A program made the position numbers and the translations under genes. A model generated the notes under the pieces. That model worked only from the letters and a program-made list of their open reading frames with translations, did not search any database and was not told the origin of the DNA. From positions 1 to 45,606 of the IMG/VR virus record IMGVR_UViG_3300009128_000031: a stretch of 45,606 nucleotides of DNA; one strand, written 5' to 3'. Origin of the DNA: a virus. Positions 3,249-43,168 of this stretch are shown here, piece by piece (position 1 is the stretch's first letter; each line of letters begins with the position of its first letter).

Positions 3249-3405
3249 GGTGTTTGTGTTTTTCATTATATTCCCCTATTAACTTAATAAGTAATTTATT
3301 AAGAGTGTAGCCTTGTTTCCCAGCTATCTGCCGGAACATGCCAGCTAGCTTTACTTGATCGCTGTCGTAGAAGGTAATCGTTATTCTATCCATTTGCTTT
3401 GCCAT
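3241..3405 (-). CDS. Ribbon-helix-helix-like small regulator
   Basis: A 54-residue protein beginning MAKQMDRITITFYDSDQVKL. A short beta strand (RITITFYD) is followed by two helices, the size and order of Arc/MetJ-type ribbon-helix-helix repressors. It is the first gene of the leftward early operon, 32 nt below the start of the consensus promoter at 3444-3472, and AGGAG precedes the ATG. A likely role is control of early transcription, perhaps through the dyad at 3202-3219. The fold assignment rests on size and pattern only. Confidence 0.6.
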   Translation of the reverse strand: MAKQMDRITITFYDSDQVKLAGMFRQIAGKQGYTLNKLLIKLIGEYNEKHKHLA

Positions 3406-3443
3406 TTTTTTTCTCCTGGTTTTTCGCTTTTAAATCTCGCCAC

Positions 3444-3472
3444 AGTATAACATGGCATTGCTTTGCTGTCAA
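3444..3472 (-). promoter_or_regulatory. Main early leftward promoter, near-consensus sigma70
   Basis: Minus strand: -35 TTGACA (3472-3467), 17-nt spacer, -10 TATACT (3449-3444). Eleven of twelve bases match consensus and the spacing is ideal. Transcription would start near 3437, giving a leader of about 32 nt before the first early gene. This is the best host-type promoter I found in the genome. Confidence 0.85.
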
Positions 3473-3835
3473 GCGCAGTTGACTCTACAGCGTCGGTATA
3501 ATTCTTTTTTTTATTTGCACACCCAAAAAACTAGCATGGCACGCATGAACGCAATTCAAAGGCAATCAAAGGCTTAGAGCAAATAAACCATGATTTGAAC
3601 AACAAAAAAAACAACGTTCCTCGACGCTGCAGCCAATATTCAACGAAGCAACAAACAACACACCCACATAAACCCCTCACCTCTTGACATTCTACCCCAA
3701 ATCCGCCCAAGCCCTTAAACACCCCTAAATATTTATAAATAACTTATATTATCTTTATATACCTGAATATAAGTAACAATGTTTATTCTTGATTTAAAAA
3801 GCCTCAAAAGCCTCAAATCATTATAATACGTTTCT

Positions 3836-3873
3836 ATAAAGGGCTAATGAACTCATAAAGGGCTAAAGGGCTA
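3836..3873. repeat. Short direct repeats ATAAAGGGCTAA
   Basis: ATAAAGGGCTAA occurs at 3836-3847 and 3855-3866 (19 bp apart), followed at once by AAAGGGCTA at 3865-3873. Just upstream, AAAAGCCTC is repeated in tandem at 3797-3814. These are iteron-like sites in the non-coding hub. Confidence 0.6.
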
Positions 3874-3929
3874 TCTAATTATTATGATTAGTAACTATAA
3901 TTAAGAACGTACGCAAACTAATACCATGA

Positions 3930-4072
3930 ACGTAATACCTCGCTTGAAAGTACGGGAATGTAAAATAATCTTACAACTAACGTAATATGTCATTACATAC
4001 GTAATACCTCTCTTGAAAGTGAGGGAATGTAAAGTATATTATTAAATAAAAAAAATGGTTTTGGGAATGTGA
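3930..4072. repeat. 35-bp direct repeats plus a third partial copy
   Basis: Bases 3930-3964 and 3999-4033 match at 32 of 35 positions and start 69 bp apart. Both contain ACGTAATACCTC, CTTGAAAGT and GGGAATGTAAA. The word ACGTAAT also occurs at 3980, and GGGAATGTGAA recurs at 4062-4072. The copies look like protein-binding iterons for replication initiation or transcription control. Confidence 0.8.
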
Positions 4073-4288
4073 AATGGAATAGTTTCGTCTTGAAATGCTA
4101 TTGACATAACAGGCTAAAGATATACTGTGTTGAATTGCTTGCAGTTAGAGTGTATAGCAACGTCGCATAATTAACGAAGTGTTAACTCACCACATTTTCA
4201 AGCTCTTATTTTTTATTATACACCCATGCACACGCATTAATTTTATTTAATTATATATACACGCATGAAGGCAGGGTATAGGGGACGC

Positions 4289-4302
4289 ACCCCCCTGGGG
4301 GT
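4289..4302. repeat. GC palindrome in an AT-rich setting
   Basis: ACCCCC and GGGGGT arms are separated by CT, within DNA that is otherwise mostly A and T. An alternating TATATATATAT tract follows directly. It could extrude as a cruciform or mark a protein-binding site. Confidence 0.6.
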
Positions 4303-4344
4303 ATATATATATTACGCCCTTAAAGAAATCTCTTATCTCTCACT

Positions 4345-4394
4345 ACACACACTCTTGATACAGTTGTTTCTCTTTCCACACACATACTCTTGAT
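4345..4394. repeat. Imperfect direct repeats containing CTCTTGAT
   Basis: ACACACACTCTTGAT at 4345-4359 and ACACACATACTCTTGAT at 4378-4394 share the core ACTCTTGAT. They lie on the late-gene side of the hub. No -10 box stands at a proper distance, so these are not ordinary promoters. Confidence 0.5.
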
Positions 4395-4604
4395 TGGTTA
4401 CTTTCTTCATACTCTGGTTTTACATCTTTTTTCACACCTAGTTTTTGGTAGATATTGCTTGTTAGTTGCGCACTACCAAAAAAAACTTCATTTTTTTTAT
4501 TTTTTTTAGCATTGATTTGCAAGTAGTTACGTTTTTTCGTGAAAAATAATTTGCGAAATAAATTTCTCAGGTGTGCGTTTTTCGGAAAATGCCTATTGCA
4601 TTGC

Positions 4605-4680
4605 AGACACTTACGATCAAAAGTGAGACACTTAGAATGTTGTATTGGAATGATTTAGGCCCTAAAAGTGCAACACTTTT
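4605..4680 (+). promoter_or_regulatory. Repeated dyad AAGTG-N3-CACTT upstream of the late operon
   Basis: The inverted repeat AAGTG-AGA-CACTT lies at 4621-4633, and a longer version, AAAAGTG-CAA-CACTTTT, at 4664-4680, with centres 45 bp apart. AGACACTTA also occurs as a direct repeat at 4605-4613 and 4626-4634, 21 bp apart (two helical turns). The position directly before the terminase gene suggests binding sites for a late regulator. The second copy is followed by TTACTT and might alternatively act as a weak terminator. I found no convincing host-type promoter between here and 4725. Confidence 0.5.
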
Positions 4681-4724
4681 TACTTAATATGGAGGCTTAG
4701 TTAATTTAAGGAGGGGTGTAGATT

Positions 4725-27969: not shown

Positions 27970-28851
27970 ATGGCAACTTTAAGTGATATTCTTGGCATTG
28001 GAGATAGGTTCCAGCAAGAACACCCTATATTAAATCTGCTGGGTGATATAGCAGGTGGGTTCAGTGATTTCGGTCAGCAACCTACTCCCATATCTGGCAT
28101 GGGTAAATACTTTAATTTAGGGTATATGAGAGAAGCGCAACCTGATCCTTGGCAGAGTGCGCTAGGTTCATTTGCCAGAGTTACAGCAAAGAAAAAGAAA
28201 GAAGAAGAGAATAAGTTCATGTTCAAAGAAATGGCTAATCTAGCTGGTACGGGTGAATATGATATAGGCATTGAATATGACGAAGCAGGCAGACCTTCTT
28301 TTAAGGTAGCTCCCCAGGATACTTTGGCTAGTGATAAAACGCAAGCGCAGATAGAGAATCTTCAATCTAAATCTTTAGCAAATGAAGCATTGGCACGAAA
28401 GAGAGATGCAACTACAGCAAGGTATGGTGCTACGCAACCCTATTGGCAGGATATAGAGAATTTACGGGAAGCGTACCAAGCTAGAAGAACTGCTATACCA
28501 CAGGGTAAGTATCCAGCTGATCAGATGGAAGAGTTTAAGGGAGCAGCTAGGAGGGCATGGGAAGAAAACAGGGATAAGATTAAGGAGCTTACTGGGAAAT
28601 CAGCGAATATGCCAAGCTGGATGAAGCCAGAAAAAATAACACAGAAAGAACAAAAGAAAGAAGAGAAGGATCTTGTGAAGCAAGCAGTTAGAGAAGCTTG
28701 GGGATTGGAAACGCCAGAAAAAGAAATAAAGAAAGAATTAAAAGCTGGTTATACAGCAGAACAAGAAAGGATGATTCAACAGAACATGGATGCGTACAAG
28801 AAAGATAGAAATGAAATCATTGATGCTTTAAATAGAAAAAGGTTGTTATAA
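27970..28851 (+). CDS. Putative second ejection/internal virion protein
   Basis: A 293-residue, mostly helical, charged protein (MATLSDILGIGDRFQQEHPI...). The N-terminal 40 residues are amphipathic; the C-terminal half is Lys/Glu-rich coil. It sits between two other putative internal virion genes with 3-10 bp gaps. No family match recognised; function inferred from order and composition. Confidence 0.55.
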   Translation: MATLSDILGIGDRFQQEHPILNLLGDIAGGFSDFGQQPTPISGMGKYFNLGYMREAQPDPWQSALGSFARVTAKKKKEEENKFMFKEMANLAGTGEYDIGIEYDEAGRPSFKVAPQDTLASDKTQAQIENLQSKSLANEALARKRDATTARYGATQPYWQDIENLREAYQARRTAIPQGKYPADQMEEFKGAARRAWEENRDKIKELTGKSANMPSWMKPEKITQKEQKKEEKDLVKQAVREAWGLETPEKEIKKELKAGYTAEQERMIQQNMDAYKKDRNEIIDALNRKRLL

Positions 28852-28854
28852 TTT

Positions 28855-31785
28855 ATGCCAAAAGATAATTATGTTATAGTTGACTTATTTGATGAAGATA
28901 CTACAGCTAAACCAGAATCATTAGTTTCTCCAAATTTGTACGATCAAGCAACTCCTCCGCAACAATCCATGGTTATCCCTGATCTTTTTGAGCAACCAGC
29001 CCCTAAGCAAGCATCTATAGGCGGGGCTATTGCCCGTACTGTTTTAGATGTAGCCCCCTTAGATTTCCTTAATAGGTTTCGCAAGAAACAGGTGCTTACC
29101 CCAGAAGAAAAGGTTGTTGCTAAGAACTATTTCAGGGAAGGGGAGGAAGCGGTTAAATGGGCTTTAGCTGGTGCACCTAAAGATTTAGAAACAATAGAAA
29201 AGGTTAGAGGAGGGGATTTTGGAGATATAGCAGTAAGTGGATTTGGCTTAGAAGAAAGTACCTCATGGCCTGCTATGTTTGCTGCAAGAATGGCTGGTGA
29301 AACAGCTGGCTTAACAACTAAGCCTTCTACTTGGCTAGGGGAGTATGCCCTAACTAAAGGAGGAGGGGCTGCAATGCGGAAGTTAGCCAGCACGCCTGGG
29401 GGAAGAAGATTCTTGGCTAAGACTGTTCCTACGTTTACAAGAGGACTATTAGCCGAGCAAGTACCTTTACACCCTGCTAGTGCTGCCAGAGAAGTAATGA
29501 GAGAAGCAGGGTTATTAAAACCTACGCCTACAGCAAAAGGCATTGCCCCTGCTATACAGGCAGTGGTTCCAGAAGAGAAGATTGCTGCCAAAATAAAGGT
29601 TCCTGTTCCAGATGAACAATTACCTAAGATTGGGAATATTAATCTCACGAAATATGAACCAGAAGTTCAGCACGGAATAAAAGAATTAGTTACTGCAAAA
29701 CCTGCTTTAGCTGCACACAAATCTATTTCACATAAAGAGACTATAAGTTTAGCAAGTAGATTAGAAAACACACCTGTCTTAAAGCGGCTATTCCAAATGC
29801 CAGAAGGTCAATTAAGGGCAGAAGTATTAAAGGTACGTCAGGGAGAAGATAAGGCTATACGTAATTTGTTAATGACAGACTTAGGTGATTTGGGTAGGTC
29901 AATGAAGGATTATTTGGCGCACAAACAAACTAGAGAGATTTCCAGAGCAGCGTTTGAAGTTGGTGGAGCTTTAGAGCAATTTAAAATTCCAATAAAAGAA
30001 CAACGAGTAATATCTGAGATGATCTTGGCTAAGATGAAAAACATTAAAACTGATCCTATAATTTCTAAAGAAGCTAAAAAAACATTAATAAAGGGATTAA
30101 GTGACTTTAAGAAAACAGTATTGTCTAAAGACTTTAATCCTACAATGATTGATAACGCATATTTTGTTTGGTTAAATAGTATCCTTTCCGATCCTAGAAC
30201 TCACATGGTTAATACAGGAAGTAACGCCCTGTTTGCTTTAGCGAAGATACCAGAAAAATTTACTCAAGCAGTAGCAGATTTAGGATTAACTGGTTTAGGC
30301 AAGTTAGGGGTTAAACGTATAGGCAAGGTTCCTTTAACTGGAAAACGAAAAGTATTCTTTGGTGAAATCCCAGCAATGATAAAGGGTTTGTTTCATAAGG
30401 GTAAAGTACCTAAAGTTGCTGGATCTAAGTTTGAAGAAATGGTCGCTCGTAGGGGATGGAAGAAATTGTTGCCTACTAGCTTGCTGCAACTAGAAGATGA
30501 TATAGGCAAGGGTATGATAGGTCGAATGGAAAAGTTTGCTCAAGCATATAGAAAAGGAGTAGGCATACGCAAGTTTGGCGAAAAAGGATTAACTGGATTA
30601 GGGAAAATTAAAACTGAACAACTATATAGAACTTTCCAAAATCAACCAGGAAAGATAGCAAAATCTTTACTTAAATTACGCAAGAACATTCCTGGGTTAA
30701 GATGGCTTATTCCCTTTGTTAAAACTCCTGCCGATATTATTAATGCTGGAATAGAGAGAACTATTCTTGGTGCAGCTTTTCTTGGTAAAGCAGCAACACA
30801 AGAACAACTAGCGCAGAGGGTGGGGCTTTTAGGTGCAAGTTCAGTTGCGGCTACTTGGATTGGGTTTCAATATTTTAGAGGCAATGTTACTGGTGATATT
30901 CCTTCTAACAAGGGGGAAAGGGAAATGTTTTACAGAGAGGGAAAACAACCAAATTCTATAAAGCTTTTTGATCATTGGATACCTTTGGAACGGATTGAAC
31001 CAATAGGCAGTTCTTTTGCTATGGTAGCGAATTTAATTGATAGATATTCTAACTCTGAAAAGGAAATGCCAGCAGAAAAAGTCATGGATTCTTTGAGTGG
31101 ACTGAGTAAGACATTAACTAATAAAACCTATTTGCAAGGACTCACTAACTTAGTTAGAGCAATGTCTAATCCTGAAATGTATGGAGCTTCTTGGGGGAGA
31201 AAGATTATTTCAGGCATGTTTACTCCTGGCTTATTGAATTATATTGGTAACTTAAAAGATCCTTACATTAGAGAAACAACCACTGTTCCTGAAACCATTA
31301 AAGCACGATTGCCATTCTTATCAGAAACGGTTGAGCCTAAGATGGATGTGTTTGGAGAGAAGGTTGAACGGAGAACGCCAGCTATTCCTTTTAGAATATC
31401 AAAGGATGAAATAAGTAGCGTAGATGAAGAATTGAGGCGATTAGATATTTTCCCAACAAAAATAGGGAAAAAGTATAAAGGTCTACCATTGTCTTCAGAA
31501 GAAAGAAACAGAATGACCTTGGTAGAAGGGCAGCTTATGAAAAAGAGATTGGAATCATTAATTAGTCTTCCTGGCTACCAAGAATTAAATGATATAGAGA
31601 AAGAAAAACATATAAGAAAGATAATAACAAAGACTAGATCTGAATCTAGGAATCCTGCATATCAAATAAAACTATTAAATGAATTAAATAAGCGTGAAAC
31701 AACAGAAGAAAAATTTGAATATCTTAAGAGGCTAGACAAGAAGAGTTCTATCCCGAAGGAACTTAAAGATCTCATTTATTCATGA
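28855..31785 (+). CDS. Large internal virion protein
   Basis: A 976-residue, mainly helical protein, the largest in the genome. The segment WLNSILSDPRTHMVNTGSNA (about residues 440-460) is typical of large phage internal or polyvalent proteins. A hydrophobic stretch near 640-670 (LGASSVAATWIGFQYF) may insert in membranes. It is probably packaged in the capsid and ejected ahead of the DNA. It is the last gene of the main late block. Its 3' end overlaps a leftward gene by 14 bp. The weak site before its ATG suggests coupling to the preceding gene. Confidence 0.75.
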   Translation: MPKDNYVIVDLFDEDTTAKPESLVSPNLYDQATPPQQSMVIPDLFEQPAPKQASIGGAIARTVLDVAPLDFLNRFRKKQVLTPEEKVVAKNYFREGEEAVKWALAGAPKDLETIEKVRGGDFGDIAVSGFGLEESTSWPAMFAARMAGETAGLTTKPSTWLGEYALTKGGGAAMRKLASTPGGRRFLAKTVPTFTRGLLAEQVPLHPASAAREVMREAGLLKPTPTAKGIAPAIQAVVPEEKIAAKIKVPVPDEQLPKIGNINLTKYEPEVQHGIKELVTAKPALAAHKSISHKETISLASRLENTPVLKRLFQMPEGQLRAEVLKVRQGEDKAIRNLLMTDLGDLGRSMKDYLAHKQTREISRAAFEVGGALEQFKIPIKEQRVISEMILAKMKNIKTDPIISKEAKKTLIKGLSDFKKTVLSKDFNPTMIDNAYFVWLNSILSDPRTHMVNTGSNALFALAKIPEKFTQAVADLGLTGLGKLGVKRIGKVPLTGKRKVFFGEIPAMIKGLFHKGKVPKVAGSKFEEMVARRGWKKLLPTSLLQLEDDIGKGMIGRMEKFAQAYRKGVGIRKFGEKGLTGLGKIKTEQLYRTFQNQPGKIAKSLLKLRKNIPGLRWLIPFVKTPADIINAGIERTILGAAFLGKAATQEQLAQRVGLLGASSVAATWIGFQYFRGNVTGDIPSNKGEREMFYREGKQPNSIKLFDHWIPLERIEPIGSSFAMVANLIDRYSNSEKEMPAEKVMDSLSGLSKTLTNKTYLQGLTNLVRAMSNPEMYGASWGRKIISGMFTPGLLNYIGNLKDPYIRETTTVPETIKARLPFLSETVEPKMDVFGEKVERRTPAIPFRISKDEISSVDEELRRLDIFPTKIGKKYKGLPLSSEERNRMTLVEGQLMKKRLESLISLPGYQELNDIEKEKHIRKIITKTRSESRNPAYQIKLLNELNKRETTEEKFEYLKRLDKKSSIPKELKDLIYS

Positions 31786-40627: not shown

Positions 40628-41052
40628 CACCCCTCCTCAAGGATAACATCCCGCACGTTTACCAGTGGGGTTTCCTGCTCTTTCCGCTTGCCTTTTACTG
40701 GGGTAAGTTCCCTTAACCAAGCCTCTACCTTCTTCACCTGAGTGTAAAACTCGCTCAGGTTCCGCACCAGTTGGCTACTTTCCTCTTCCGTAATCAGTAA
40801 CTTGTCCTGGTTAGAGGCACTCTCAATCTCACGCAGCCAGCGGTAAGTACCGTAGTTATCAGCGTGATACCAGAGTATCTTCTTTGAGTACGCTTTATCC
40901 AGGTACTTTAGTTTGTAGGCTTTGTACTGGTGCAAGTTCTCTATCGCCCAGCGGTAGCATTTGGTAAGCAGGTCGTCTAACCCAATCTGTTCTCGTTCGT
41001 AAGCACGCAGATCGTGGAGTAGGGGATTGTTAGCGGTGTGTAATAAGCTCAT
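40627..41052 (-). CDS. Hypothetical protein near the replication gene
   Basis: A 141-residue helical protein (MSLLHTANNPLLHDLRAYER...). It overlaps the replisome-organiser-like gene by 4 bp (ATGA). In comparable phage operons this slot can hold a helicase-loader partner, but no ATP-binding motif is present. Role unknown. Confidence 0.55.
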   Translation of the reverse strand: MSLLHTANNPLLHDLRAYEREQIGLDDLLTKCYRWAIENLHQYKAYKLKYLDKAYSKKILWYHADNYGTYRWLREIESASNQDKLLITEEESSQLVRNLSEFYTQVKKVEAWLRELTPVKGKRKEQETPLVNVRDVILEEG

Positions 41053-41702
41053 TCATCTACCTCCAAACATTTCTCTCTAAACTCAGCATCTAGTTCGGCC
41101 TCTGTTTTTCGGGGGGGCGGCTTCCGCTGGGTTTTCATAAAGTCAGGCCACATCTTGATACAGGTTTCCAACGTCCATTCGTGCCGCCGCCGGGACATCC
41201 AATCCAAACAAGAAAGAATTAGGTTGGTATCACCTTTTGCTAAGACAAGAAGTTGGTTCATACGGAGTCCTGTTCTTTTATAAAATGGTTGTCCTAAGTC
41301 CTGCCAGTCATACGCTTTTAGCGTAATGTATTTAGATCTTATCTTCTTCTTATCTTCTTCTTTATCTGCAAGCTCCTTGGGAGTTCCTTGGGAGTTCCCC
41401 GGGAGTACCCAATTGTGTAGTTTCTTGAACCCTTTAATGTAGTAATAGTCTCTGTGTGCCAACACTTTAGGAAAATTGGCTCTAATTTCAGAAAAAATTG
41501 CCTCTAATTCACTTTCAGTTTCGTTTGCTCGTAAAAGCTGGATAAGAACGGGATACTTTCGAGGTACTTTGTTCATATATTCCGCACATAACAGCATTAA
41601 TTTGATGTAATATAGCTGCGCTGTTTGGCTCATTAAAAAAAATCTTGGGTCATTTAGTAATCGCTTTTCCAGTTTAATCCAATGAATTTGTCTATAGGGC
41701 AT
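41049..41702 (-). CDS. Replisome-organiser-like (DnaD-type) protein
   Basis: A 217-residue protein. The N-terminal WIKLEKRLLNDPRFFLMSQT, followed by QLYYIKLMLLCAEY, follows the winged-helix pattern of phage replisome organisers and DnaD-like initiators. The C-terminal end is charged. These proteins bind the phage origin and recruit the host helicase. It is the only replication-initiation candidate here, with no phage polymerase, helicase or primase visible. It lies 500 bp from a large periodic non-coding array. Confidence 0.65.
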   Translation of the reverse strand: MPYRQIHWIKLEKRLLNDPRFFLMSQTAQLYYIKLMLLCAEYMNKVPRKYPVLIQLLRANETESELEAIFSEIRANFPKVLAHRDYYYIKGFKKLHNWVLPGNSQGTPKELADKEEDKKKIRSKYITLKAYDWQDLGQPFYKRTGLRMNQLLVLAKGDTNLILSCLDWMSRRRHEWTLETCIKMWPDFMKTQRKPPPRKTEAELDAEFREKCLEVDE

Positions 41703-41712
41703 AACTACTCCT

Positions 41713-42195
41713 TTAAACTAATACCTTCTCTGTATTGTCAATAGCCATATAGATCTTTGACAATTCCTGATAGTTGTTGTATCTAGTTTTCCATTCTCTT
41801 ACCTCTCTCATAGCATTTTGTAAAATCTGTTTATGGTATTCCTTATCTGAAAGTACATTGTCTATTGATACATAACAGCTCTCGTTGCTTTCTGCTGGAG
41901 TTACGCTAAAAAATGCTTCTATGTGTTTTTCCTCATTGCCATCTTTGATAACGACTACTTCTACTGATCTAATGTAATATCTTGCTTGGCTCATTCTATA
42001 TTTATGTGCAGCAACATCGTTGTTCCATTCAAACAGGTGATGAATCGGGGATCTTTTCATTGCTGCATTTTTGACAATCTCTTCTGGAGTTATTTTGTGG
42101 TTGTTCTTCGCTAGTAACCTCTCTATTTCTTGTCCTAAAACTTGAGCATCTTCTTGCGATATACTGTAATTCTTTCTAGGAACATACTTTTTCAC
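41713..42195 (-). CDS. Conserved-type phage protein of unknown function
   Basis: A 160-residue protein starting with GTG 42195 (AGGAGGG upstream; the ATG two bases earlier is followed at once by a stop). The central pattern SPIHHLFEWNNDVAAHKYRM, followed by ARYYIRSVEV, is one I associate with a widespread unannotated phage family near replication and DNA-binding genes. It is probably nucleic-acid related. The periodic array ends 25 bp upstream of its start. Confidence 0.6.
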   Translation of the reverse strand: MKKYVPRKNYSISQEDAQVLGQEIERLLAKNNHKITPEEIVKNAAMKRSPIHHLFEWNNDVAAHKYRMSQARYYIRSVEVVVIKDGNEEKHIEAFFSVTPAESNESCYVSIDNVLSDKEYHKQILQNAMREVREWKTRYNNYQELSKIYMAIDNTEKVLV

Positions 42196-42220
42196 ATAAC
42201 CCTCCTTTGTTAATTATCCA

Positions 42221-42352
42221 TACCCTACCGTACCTTAATCCAAAACACCGTTACATTCCTTTAAGTACCTCACCACAACTCACCTTAACGGATCGCACCA
42301 AACCATACCGGACATTACCCCACATCAACATACCATTCCCGACCCCTCCTCG
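42221..42352. repeat. Degenerate 5-nt periodic array, part A
   Basis: Read from 42221 in steps of five, 16 of 26 pentamers have CC at positions 3-4 on the plus strand (for example TACCC, TACCG, TACCT, CACCA). On the transcribed minus strand this is a GG every 5 nt. No gene explains it. A 48-bp AT-rich spacer separates it from part B. Confidence 0.75.
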
Positions 42353-42400
42353 TTATAGCGTATTTTTTTGGTTTCAAAGGATGCCTGTATATTTTAGTTA

Positions 42401-42560
42401 CCCTTACCTTACCCAATCCTACCCGACCATACCGTACCTCAACGCACCATTCCGTGCCAAGCCTGGCCGTAACGCACCTAACCAATATGAACCATGCCTA
42501 ACCGGACCATGCTCTGCCAATACCACTTCCCACCCAACCTAGACATGCCTAACCACGCCT
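42401..42560. repeat. Degenerate 5-nt periodic array, part B
   Basis: From 42401, 19 of 24 consecutive pentamers have CC at positions 2-3 (ACCTT, ACCCA, ACCAT, ACCGT, GCCAA and so on). After a one-base phase shift at 42521, 6 of the last 8 continue. The minus-strand RNA would read GGNNN repeatedly, which could form two-layer G-quadruplexes or bind a protein at regular steps. Confidence 0.85.
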
Positions 42561-42568
42561 CAGTTTCT

Positions 42569-43168
42569 TTATTTCTTTACTACTTCATACATCCCGAAAT
42601 TCCCACTCTTTTGAGGACGCCAATCACCCACGCCCATAGCAAAGCCAGCTTTATCAATTAGTTTGAATATCTGTTCTAGTGATAAAATAGCTTCATCGTA
42701 TTTTACGATTAAGGTTGTTGACCATTCTGTAAACATTGGCCTAACTCTTATATCTAATACTCGTCCACCACGACCATTAAGGTAAACGCCATCTTGTCTT
42801 CTAATAATCTCTTTATATTTGAGTTCTGCCATGTCATTTAATACTTGCATACCACTAAGTACCGACTTTTTCGTAATATTAGGAAAGAATGTTGCAACTT
42901 CCACCGCTCCTTTCTTAAAGCCAACACCAGGAAACCCATATTTCTTTGTTCCCGGCACATAATGAAAGCAGGATTCATATTCAGCATCAAAATCTCTTAT
43001 TCCTCTTACCTTCGTTCCTTCTTTAACTTGTTTGATTCTTATTTTTTCTAAAGCTGCTGCGGATACAGCATGTACTATTAATGGTGTTACCCCTCGTATC
43101 GGAACATTAACTACAACGTATTTTGATGCAAGTATGCTTACGGGTTTCTTTTCCTTAGTTTTTTTCAT
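42569..43168 (-). CDS. Phage protein with Gly-rich RAMP-like C terminus
   Basis: A 199-residue protein. It begins with a beta strand and IRGVTPLIVHAVS (near residue 24-36), has an acidic, aromatic middle (FDAEYESCFHYVPG) and ends with GVGDWRPQKSGNFGMYEVV. The final Gly-rich loop recalls the G-rich loop of RAMP-fold proteins such as Cas5/Cas7, and the overall pattern is that of a common unannotated phage family. An RNA- or ssDNA-binding role is plausible. The GG array lies just downstream of its stop in the same transcript. Confidence 0.55.
   Translation of the reverse strand: MKKTKEKKPVSILASKYVVVNVPIRGVTPLIVHAVSAAALEKIRIKQVKEGTKVRGIRDFDAEYESCFHYVPGTKKYGFPGVGFKKGAVEVATFFPNITKKSVLSGMQVLNDMAELKYKEIIRRQDGVYLNGRGGRVLDIRVRPMFTEWSTTLIVKYDEAILSLEQIFKLIDKAGFAMGVGDWRPQKSGNFGMYEVVKK

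What the first reader, a model, noticed from the sequence alone, without database searches (positions are those of the whole stretch)
42221..42560. Two arrays with a GG dinucleotide every five bases in the early transcript
In part B, 19 of 24 consecutive pentamers have CC (GG on the transcribed strand) in the same phase, while the other three bases vary. Part A shows the same at 16 of 26. The region has no gene. Fixed spacing with a variable filler is not a normal tandem repeat; it suggests selection for the spacing, such as stacked G-quadruplexes (GGNNN), a protein filament with a 5-nt footprint, or an origin element. The replisome-organiser-like gene and a RAMP-like protein are on either side.
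Basis: seen in the sequence. Interest (0 to 1): 0.85.

Follow-up and report, generated by a model that had tools for sequence, protein, structure and literature searches.

The report
VIPR guide-RNA arrays in a phage
The odd five-base rhythm is real: it is the guide-RNA region of VIPR, a recently described RNA-guided system (a CRISPR-like relative) that phages use against rival phages, so this is another member of a known system, with a partner gene unlike that of the lab-studied example.

Summary
On the minus (transcribed) strand, 42559-42215 is built of GGYNN pentamers in three in-phase blocks of 8, 24 and 27 units. GG recurs at lag 5 with z = 7.3 against shuffles; nothing else in the window behaves this way. 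It is the guide-RNA region of a Viral Interference Programmable Repeat (VIPR) system, described in a 2026 preprint (PMC13142463), not a G-quadruplex array or origin. The upstream gene 42569-43168(-) is the Vipr protein: it matches the solved SUSP1 Vipr chain 36pp (single-sequence E = 1.7e-8; family profile 9.6e-42), and its confident model resembles Csm3/Cas7 RAMPs. Searching IMG/VR only for a GGNNN rhythm returned 120 loci, 81 of which carry a homolog of this gene. Arrays lie on the vipr strand 290 to 2. The downstream gene 41713-42195(-) is the candidate accessory (vap); its family occurred only beside Vipr. Window and SUSP1 (type II) fall in different, well-supported Vipr clades. No natural target was identified. 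Verdict: a new member of a known kind. Open: the arrays' length (24 and 27 units against the reported 9-16) and the target.

The parts
42569..43168 (-). vipr: Vipr protein, 199 aa, a RAMP (Cas7-like) with C-terminal glycine-rich loop GVGDWRPQKSGNFG
   Evidence: PDB 36pp 'SUSP1 Vipr protein' phmmer E=1.7e-8, profile E=9.6e-42; AF2 pLDDT 93.3; Foldseek Csm3/Cas7 best E=3.5e-6; homolog in 81 of 120 array-selected loci
42520..42559 (-). vrRNA block B1: 8 in-phase GGYNN units, 6 with GG
42399..42518 (-). vrRNA block B2: 24 in-phase GGYNN units, 19 with GG; ends GGTAAGGTAAGGGTA then AACTAA
   Evidence: SUSP1 arrays end in a similar GGGTAGTTA
42350..42398 (-). spacer between blocks, possible 3' tail of the B guide; no stable predicted fold
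   Evidence: fold z = +0.86 for 42340-42415; no Rfam match
42215..42349 (-). vrRNA block A: 27 in-phase GGYNN units, 17 with GG; ends GGTATGGATA then ATTAA
41713..42195 (-). vap candidate: 160-aa accessory protein, possibly winged-helix DNA binding; GTG start after AAAGGAGGG
   Evidence: family of 33 members in the fetched loci, each in a locus with Vipr; phrog_15946; AF2 pLDDT 95.1; weak matches, many of them winged-helix or other DNA-binding proteins, E about 0.5

Best explanation
The region is a VIPR locus: vipr, then arrays of GGY/NN guide RNA (vrRNA), then vap, all on the minus strand with the neighbouring non-structural genes. Vipr, a small Cas7-like RAMP, oligomerises on the RNA, probably one subunit per 5-nt unit, holding each GGY. 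The two free bases of each unit pair with double-stranded DNA in the pattern NNxNNxNN (one target base skipped per unit), so that transcription through the bound site is blocked. Targets are expected to be competing phages, satellites or prophages in the same host. Membership is shown here from sequence and predicted fold. Guide pairing, the 1-nt skip and repression are inferred from the published SUSP1 experiments (PMC13142463). One subunit per unit and the role of this vap family (probably DNA binding) are inferences.
For: GGYNN periodicity far above shuffles; a pattern scan with no protein information finds loci of which 81 of 120 encode a homolog of the neighbouring protein, none in 86 kb of control loci; arrays on the vipr strand 290:2 and 289 of 290 within 1.5 kb; homology to PDB 36pp SUSP1 Vipr; RAMP fold; SUSP1 locus itself recovered with the same gene pair and arrays; candidate vap family always in loci with Vipr.
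Against: No natural target found under the 1-nt-skip rule. Blocks of 24 and 27 units exceed the 9-16 reported, and 17 of 59 units lack an exact GG. No stable 3' tail structure was predicted. Expression and activity are untested.
Confidence: 0.93

Rival explanations
1. A decayed or non-functional VIPR locus: the vipr and vap genes are intact but the guides have degenerated (imperfect GG) and no longer direct silencing.
For: Only 42 of 59 units have an exact GG, where many relatives are near 1.0; no target found.
Against: Phase holds over 27 units without an indel; 55 of 59 units keep at least one of the two Gs; SUSP1, experimentally active, also has imperfect units such as GTTAA and TGTCT; both genes are open.
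Confidence: 0.15
2. The array works as stacked two-tetrad G-quadruplexes in RNA or DNA, without a guide function.
For: GGN3GG spacing is sterically compatible with two-tetrad quadruplexes (general knowledge).
Against: Does not predict the pyrimidine at position 3 (p = 3e-7), the tie to one RAMP family or the strand rule; units with one G lost are common.
Confidence: 0.02
3. An origin of replication element bound by a nearby replication protein.
Against: The units are not iterated in sequence; in other phages arrays sit in unrelated contexts, including among tail genes (LittleE; Ecliptus), next to vipr.
Confidence: 0.01

Closest known systems
VIPR of Escherichia phage SUSP1 (type II), PMC13142463; PDB 36pp; genes ALH47069 (vipr) and ALH47068 (vap1), identified here by position and homology
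   Same: Vipr homolog, GGY/NN arrays in the intergenic regions, array on the vipr strand, one small accessory gene, phage-borne, imperfect units such as GTTNN and TGTNN
   Different: Window Vipr lies in another clade (100/99 support); vap is a different family; arrays sit between vipr and vap and run 24-27 units in one phase; no tail structure like the pseudoknot reported for SUSP1 was found
VIPR loci of Gordonia phages Pipp (gp42-gp44) and Ecliptus (gp19-gp20)
   Same: Same Vipr clade, same vap family, same order vipr-array-vap
   Different: 35-37% Vipr identity; arrays are shorter staggered blocks joined by a 4-nt GGCA step
Cas7/Csm3 backbone of Class 1 CRISPR-Cas
   Same: Predicted fold; a protein filament on a guide RNA with periodic unpaired positions is the expected working mode
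   Different: 5-nt GGY/NN scaffold rather than 6-nt periodicity on an arbitrary spacer; no CRISPR repeats or cas genes; phage-borne

Membership tests
VIPR | Vipr protein: single small RAMP with RRM core, G-loop and thumb | tested here: met
   36pp match E=1.7e-8 / 9.6e-42; Csm3/Cas7 fold matches; G-loop residues G179, R184, G192 invariant in 66 relatives. The thumb was not examined separately.
VIPR | vrRNA of alternating GGY/NN motifs next to vipr | tested here: met
   59 GGYNN units at 42215-42559
VIPR | 9-16 repeats per vrRNA | tested here: inconclusive
   Phase blocks of 8, 24 and 27 units; transcript ends unknown. 37 of 309 blocks in relatives are also 20 or longer, so block length does not fix guide length
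VIPR | Accessory vap gene | tested here: met
   41713-42195(-), family always in loci with Vipr
VIPR | Structured invariable 3' tail on each vrRNA | tested here: inconclusive
   Similar GGRTAAYTAA ends after B2 and A, no stable fold
VIPR | NNxNN (1-nt skip) match to a competing element | tested here: inconclusive
   No hit extends beyond the exact seed; host unknown
VIPR | vrRNA expressed, bound by Vipr, represses the target | not testable with these tools
   -
VIPR type II (SUSP1) | Groups with SUSP1 Vipr and carries vap1 | tested here: not met
   Outside the SUSP1 clade; SUSP1 vap1 not found by the profile of this vap family
CRISPR-Cas Class 1 | CRISPR repeats with unique spacers plus cas operon | tested here: not met
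   No tandem-repeat array of that kind here; the neighbouring genes scanned match no cas family

The most novel reading that the evidence does not exclude
This locus uses very long, uninterrupted guides: 24 and 27 units here, which would read about 70-80 bp of target with 48-54 specified bases, with in-phase runs of up to 141 and 173 units in other Vipr clades (L021, L072). That would be a long-guide mode not characterised in the preprint.
Probability: 0.2. Interest if true: 0.6.

Novelty: new member of a known kind. Interest (0 to 1): 0.42.

Why it matters
A tool-less reader found, from base spacing alone, a guide-RNA system first reported in April 2026, and protein-blind retrieval recovers the Vipr-array link in 81 uncultivated viral loci. 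The window adds a divergent member (35-37% identity to its nearest relatives found) from a clade whose accessory protein matches no characterised family here and whose blocks here are longer than the guides tested so far. Such loci are open to direct tests of guide length and of what the accessory protein does.

Tried and rejected
G-quadruplex and origin readings (see rivals). A coding explanation, + strand ORF 42207-42542: no family match; taken as a by-product of the periodicity. TRAP-type 11-mer ring: considered because many relatives have 11-12-unit (54-59 nt) blocks; dropped once the neighbour proved to be a RAMP and a Vipr. Target search by the 1-nt-skip rule: one search gave one chance hit (L133, no extension); genome hits L136-L140 do not extend (best L137, Weissella, 16 of 36 flanking bases against 9 expected, not convincing for the best of five); L141-L143 do not extend. 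Decoded peptides gave nothing in phages (best E = 3) or PHROGs. Block A read as codon positions 1-2 looks coding (p = 3.5e-4), but most long arrays in relatives show the same sense bias, so I treat it as compositional. Host identification through the terminase in GTDB genomes found nothing. The window vap's own viral-contig search found nothing.

Full report
Observation. On the minus strand the region downstream of gene 42569-43168 is a run of pentamers GGYNN. In B2 (42518-42399) 19 of 24 units have GG in phase, and in A (42349-42215) 17 of 27; a leading block B1 (42559-42520) has 6 of 8. The lag-5 autocorrelation of CC on the + strand is 29 against 8.9 +/- 2.8 in 2000 dinucleotide shuffles (z = 7.3), with peaks at 10, 15 and 20. 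The region has 19 same-phase CC in 125 bases, where the best place for GG on the other strand has 8, and a both-strand scan of the window finds no second array. The third base is a pyrimidine in 49 of 59 units (p = 3e-7), while 15 of the 16 possible NN pairs occur. So two bases vary, not three.

Search without protein information. Apart from a minority of G-rich runs, these are GG[CT]NN arrays, typically in blocks of about 12 units, in contigs from about 40% to 71% GC. A profile started from the single window protein 42569-43168 finds a homolog in 81 of the 120 loci, never two in one locus, and none in 86 kb of loci fetched for other reasons. Of the 39 without a hit, 10 are runs without the pyrimidine and 13 have the array near an end of the stretch. 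The other 16 may hold Viprs too divergent for the profile; this was not followed up. Arrays lie on the same strand as the gene in 290 of 292 cases, and 289 of the 290 lie within 1.5 kb. In the reverse direction, 12 loci fetched because they encode a homolog (2 viral contigs, 10 named phage records) were examined, and 11 have arrays. The exception, prophiBWHA-1 (L131), has none even at a lower threshold.

Identification. Before any literature search the anatomy pointed to a RAMP filament on a discontinuous guide; I also half-remembered the name VIPR and noted it as a lead (note). Full-text search then found the VIPR preprint (PMC13142463, doi 10.64898/2026.04.26.720920), which describes the same unit, gene pair and phage setting, and shows experimentally for SUSP1 that the NN pairs read double-stranded DNA with one skipped base per unit and repress transcription. 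The window protein matches the PDB chain 36pp named 'SUSP1 Vipr protein' (phmmer E = 1.7e-8; profile of 66 relatives E = 9.6e-42). Its AlphaFold2 model (pLDDT 93.3) hits Csm3 and other Cas7-type RAMPs (best E = 3.5e-6; TM-scores mostly 0.4-0.57, so the fold is related but not close). The SUSP1 record (KT454805) has genes at 28474-29061 and 28031-28471 flanked by arrays, as the preprint says, and its arrays contain imperfect units (GTTAA, TGTCT) like those in the window.

Accessory gene and type. 41713-42195(-) starts at GTG after a good ribosome-binding site. Its family has 33 members in the fetched loci, every one in a locus with a Vipr homolog; because the loci were chosen for arrays or Vipr, this shows association, not exclusivity. 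The SUSP1 vap1 is not among them. The model (pLDDT 95.1) has only weak structural matches, many of them winged-helix or other DNA-binding proteins, E about 0.5, so DNA binding is a guess. In a tree of 89 Viprs the window falls in a 38-row clade (support 100/99) in which 32 rows carry this vap family; SUSP1, Mijalis and LESphi2 fall outside. The window is the longest tip of the tree (1.81), so its exact place inside the clade is unsure. It therefore does not look like type II. The preprint says types II, VI and VII have DNA-binding vaps, but the type number cannot be fixed without its supplement.

Guides. Read by the 1-nt-skip rule, B2 specifies 48 bases and A 54. Five 9-unit exact scans of viral contigs and one of 84,980 species genomes gave 9 hits. 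By my own rough estimate that is no more than chance would give for 18 specified bases, and none extends convincingly to neighbouring units. The host is unknown: the terminase search in genomes found nothing, and the nearest record (L134) is a 99.93% identical fragment of the same phage covering 3804-19481. The target is therefore open.

What is unusual. Characterised vrRNAs have 9-16 units; here the phase runs unbroken for 24 and 27. Across all Vipr loci 37 of 309 blocks have 20 or more units, the longest 141 (L021) and 173 (L072), both in other Vipr clades. Several loci of the window's own clade instead show staggered blocks joined by a 4-nt GGCA step, probably the staggered overlapping vrRNAs mentioned in the preprint. 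Whether the long blocks are one long guide, several overlapping guides, or decaying guides is not settled.

Verdict. Observation confirmed, interpretation partly right, object identified: a VIPR guide-RNA region, a new member of a known kind. Shown here: array statistics, Vipr homology and predicted fold, vap association, clade. Inferred from the preprint: RNA-guided DNA binding, 1-nt skip, repression of rivals.

Noticed in passing
window 41337-41406: Two sets of 11-bp tandem repeats (TCTTATCTTCT x2.7 and TCCTTGGGAGT x3) inside gene 41049-41702(-).
   Followed up: no
window 3270-4720: Stretch with no convincing gene, with a 38-bp direct repeat (3930-3967 / 3999-4036, 89%), a 27-bp direct repeat (4333 / 4368) and an AT-rich inverted repeat 4035-4057 / 4235-4257. 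Possibly regulatory or an origin.
   Followed up: partly
L021:6311-7015 and L072:8059-8923: In-phase GGYNN arrays of 141 and 173 units next to Vipr, far beyond the 9-16 units described for vrRNAs.
   Followed up: partly
L127 (Mycobacterium phage LittleE) and L124 (Gordonia phage Ecliptus): VIPR loci inserted among tail genes, in LittleE on the opposite strand to them: a moron-like placement that suggests the system moves as a cassette.
   Followed up: no
L001, L002, L012, L019, L025, L029, L031, L033, L054, L059, L063, L086, L090, L101, L103, L108: Loci with pyrimidine-type GGYNN arrays and enough flank but no Vipr hit by the profile: possible divergent Viprs or stand-alone arrays. L002 or others may include coding repeats.
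   Followed up: no
arrays of all Vipr loci: NN pairs of single arrays are more strand-coherent as codon positions 1-2 than NN pairs pooled within a locus (257 arrays, z = 5), in line with coding targets read with the wobble base skipped; a general sense-strand bias makes this only suggestive.
   Followed up: partly
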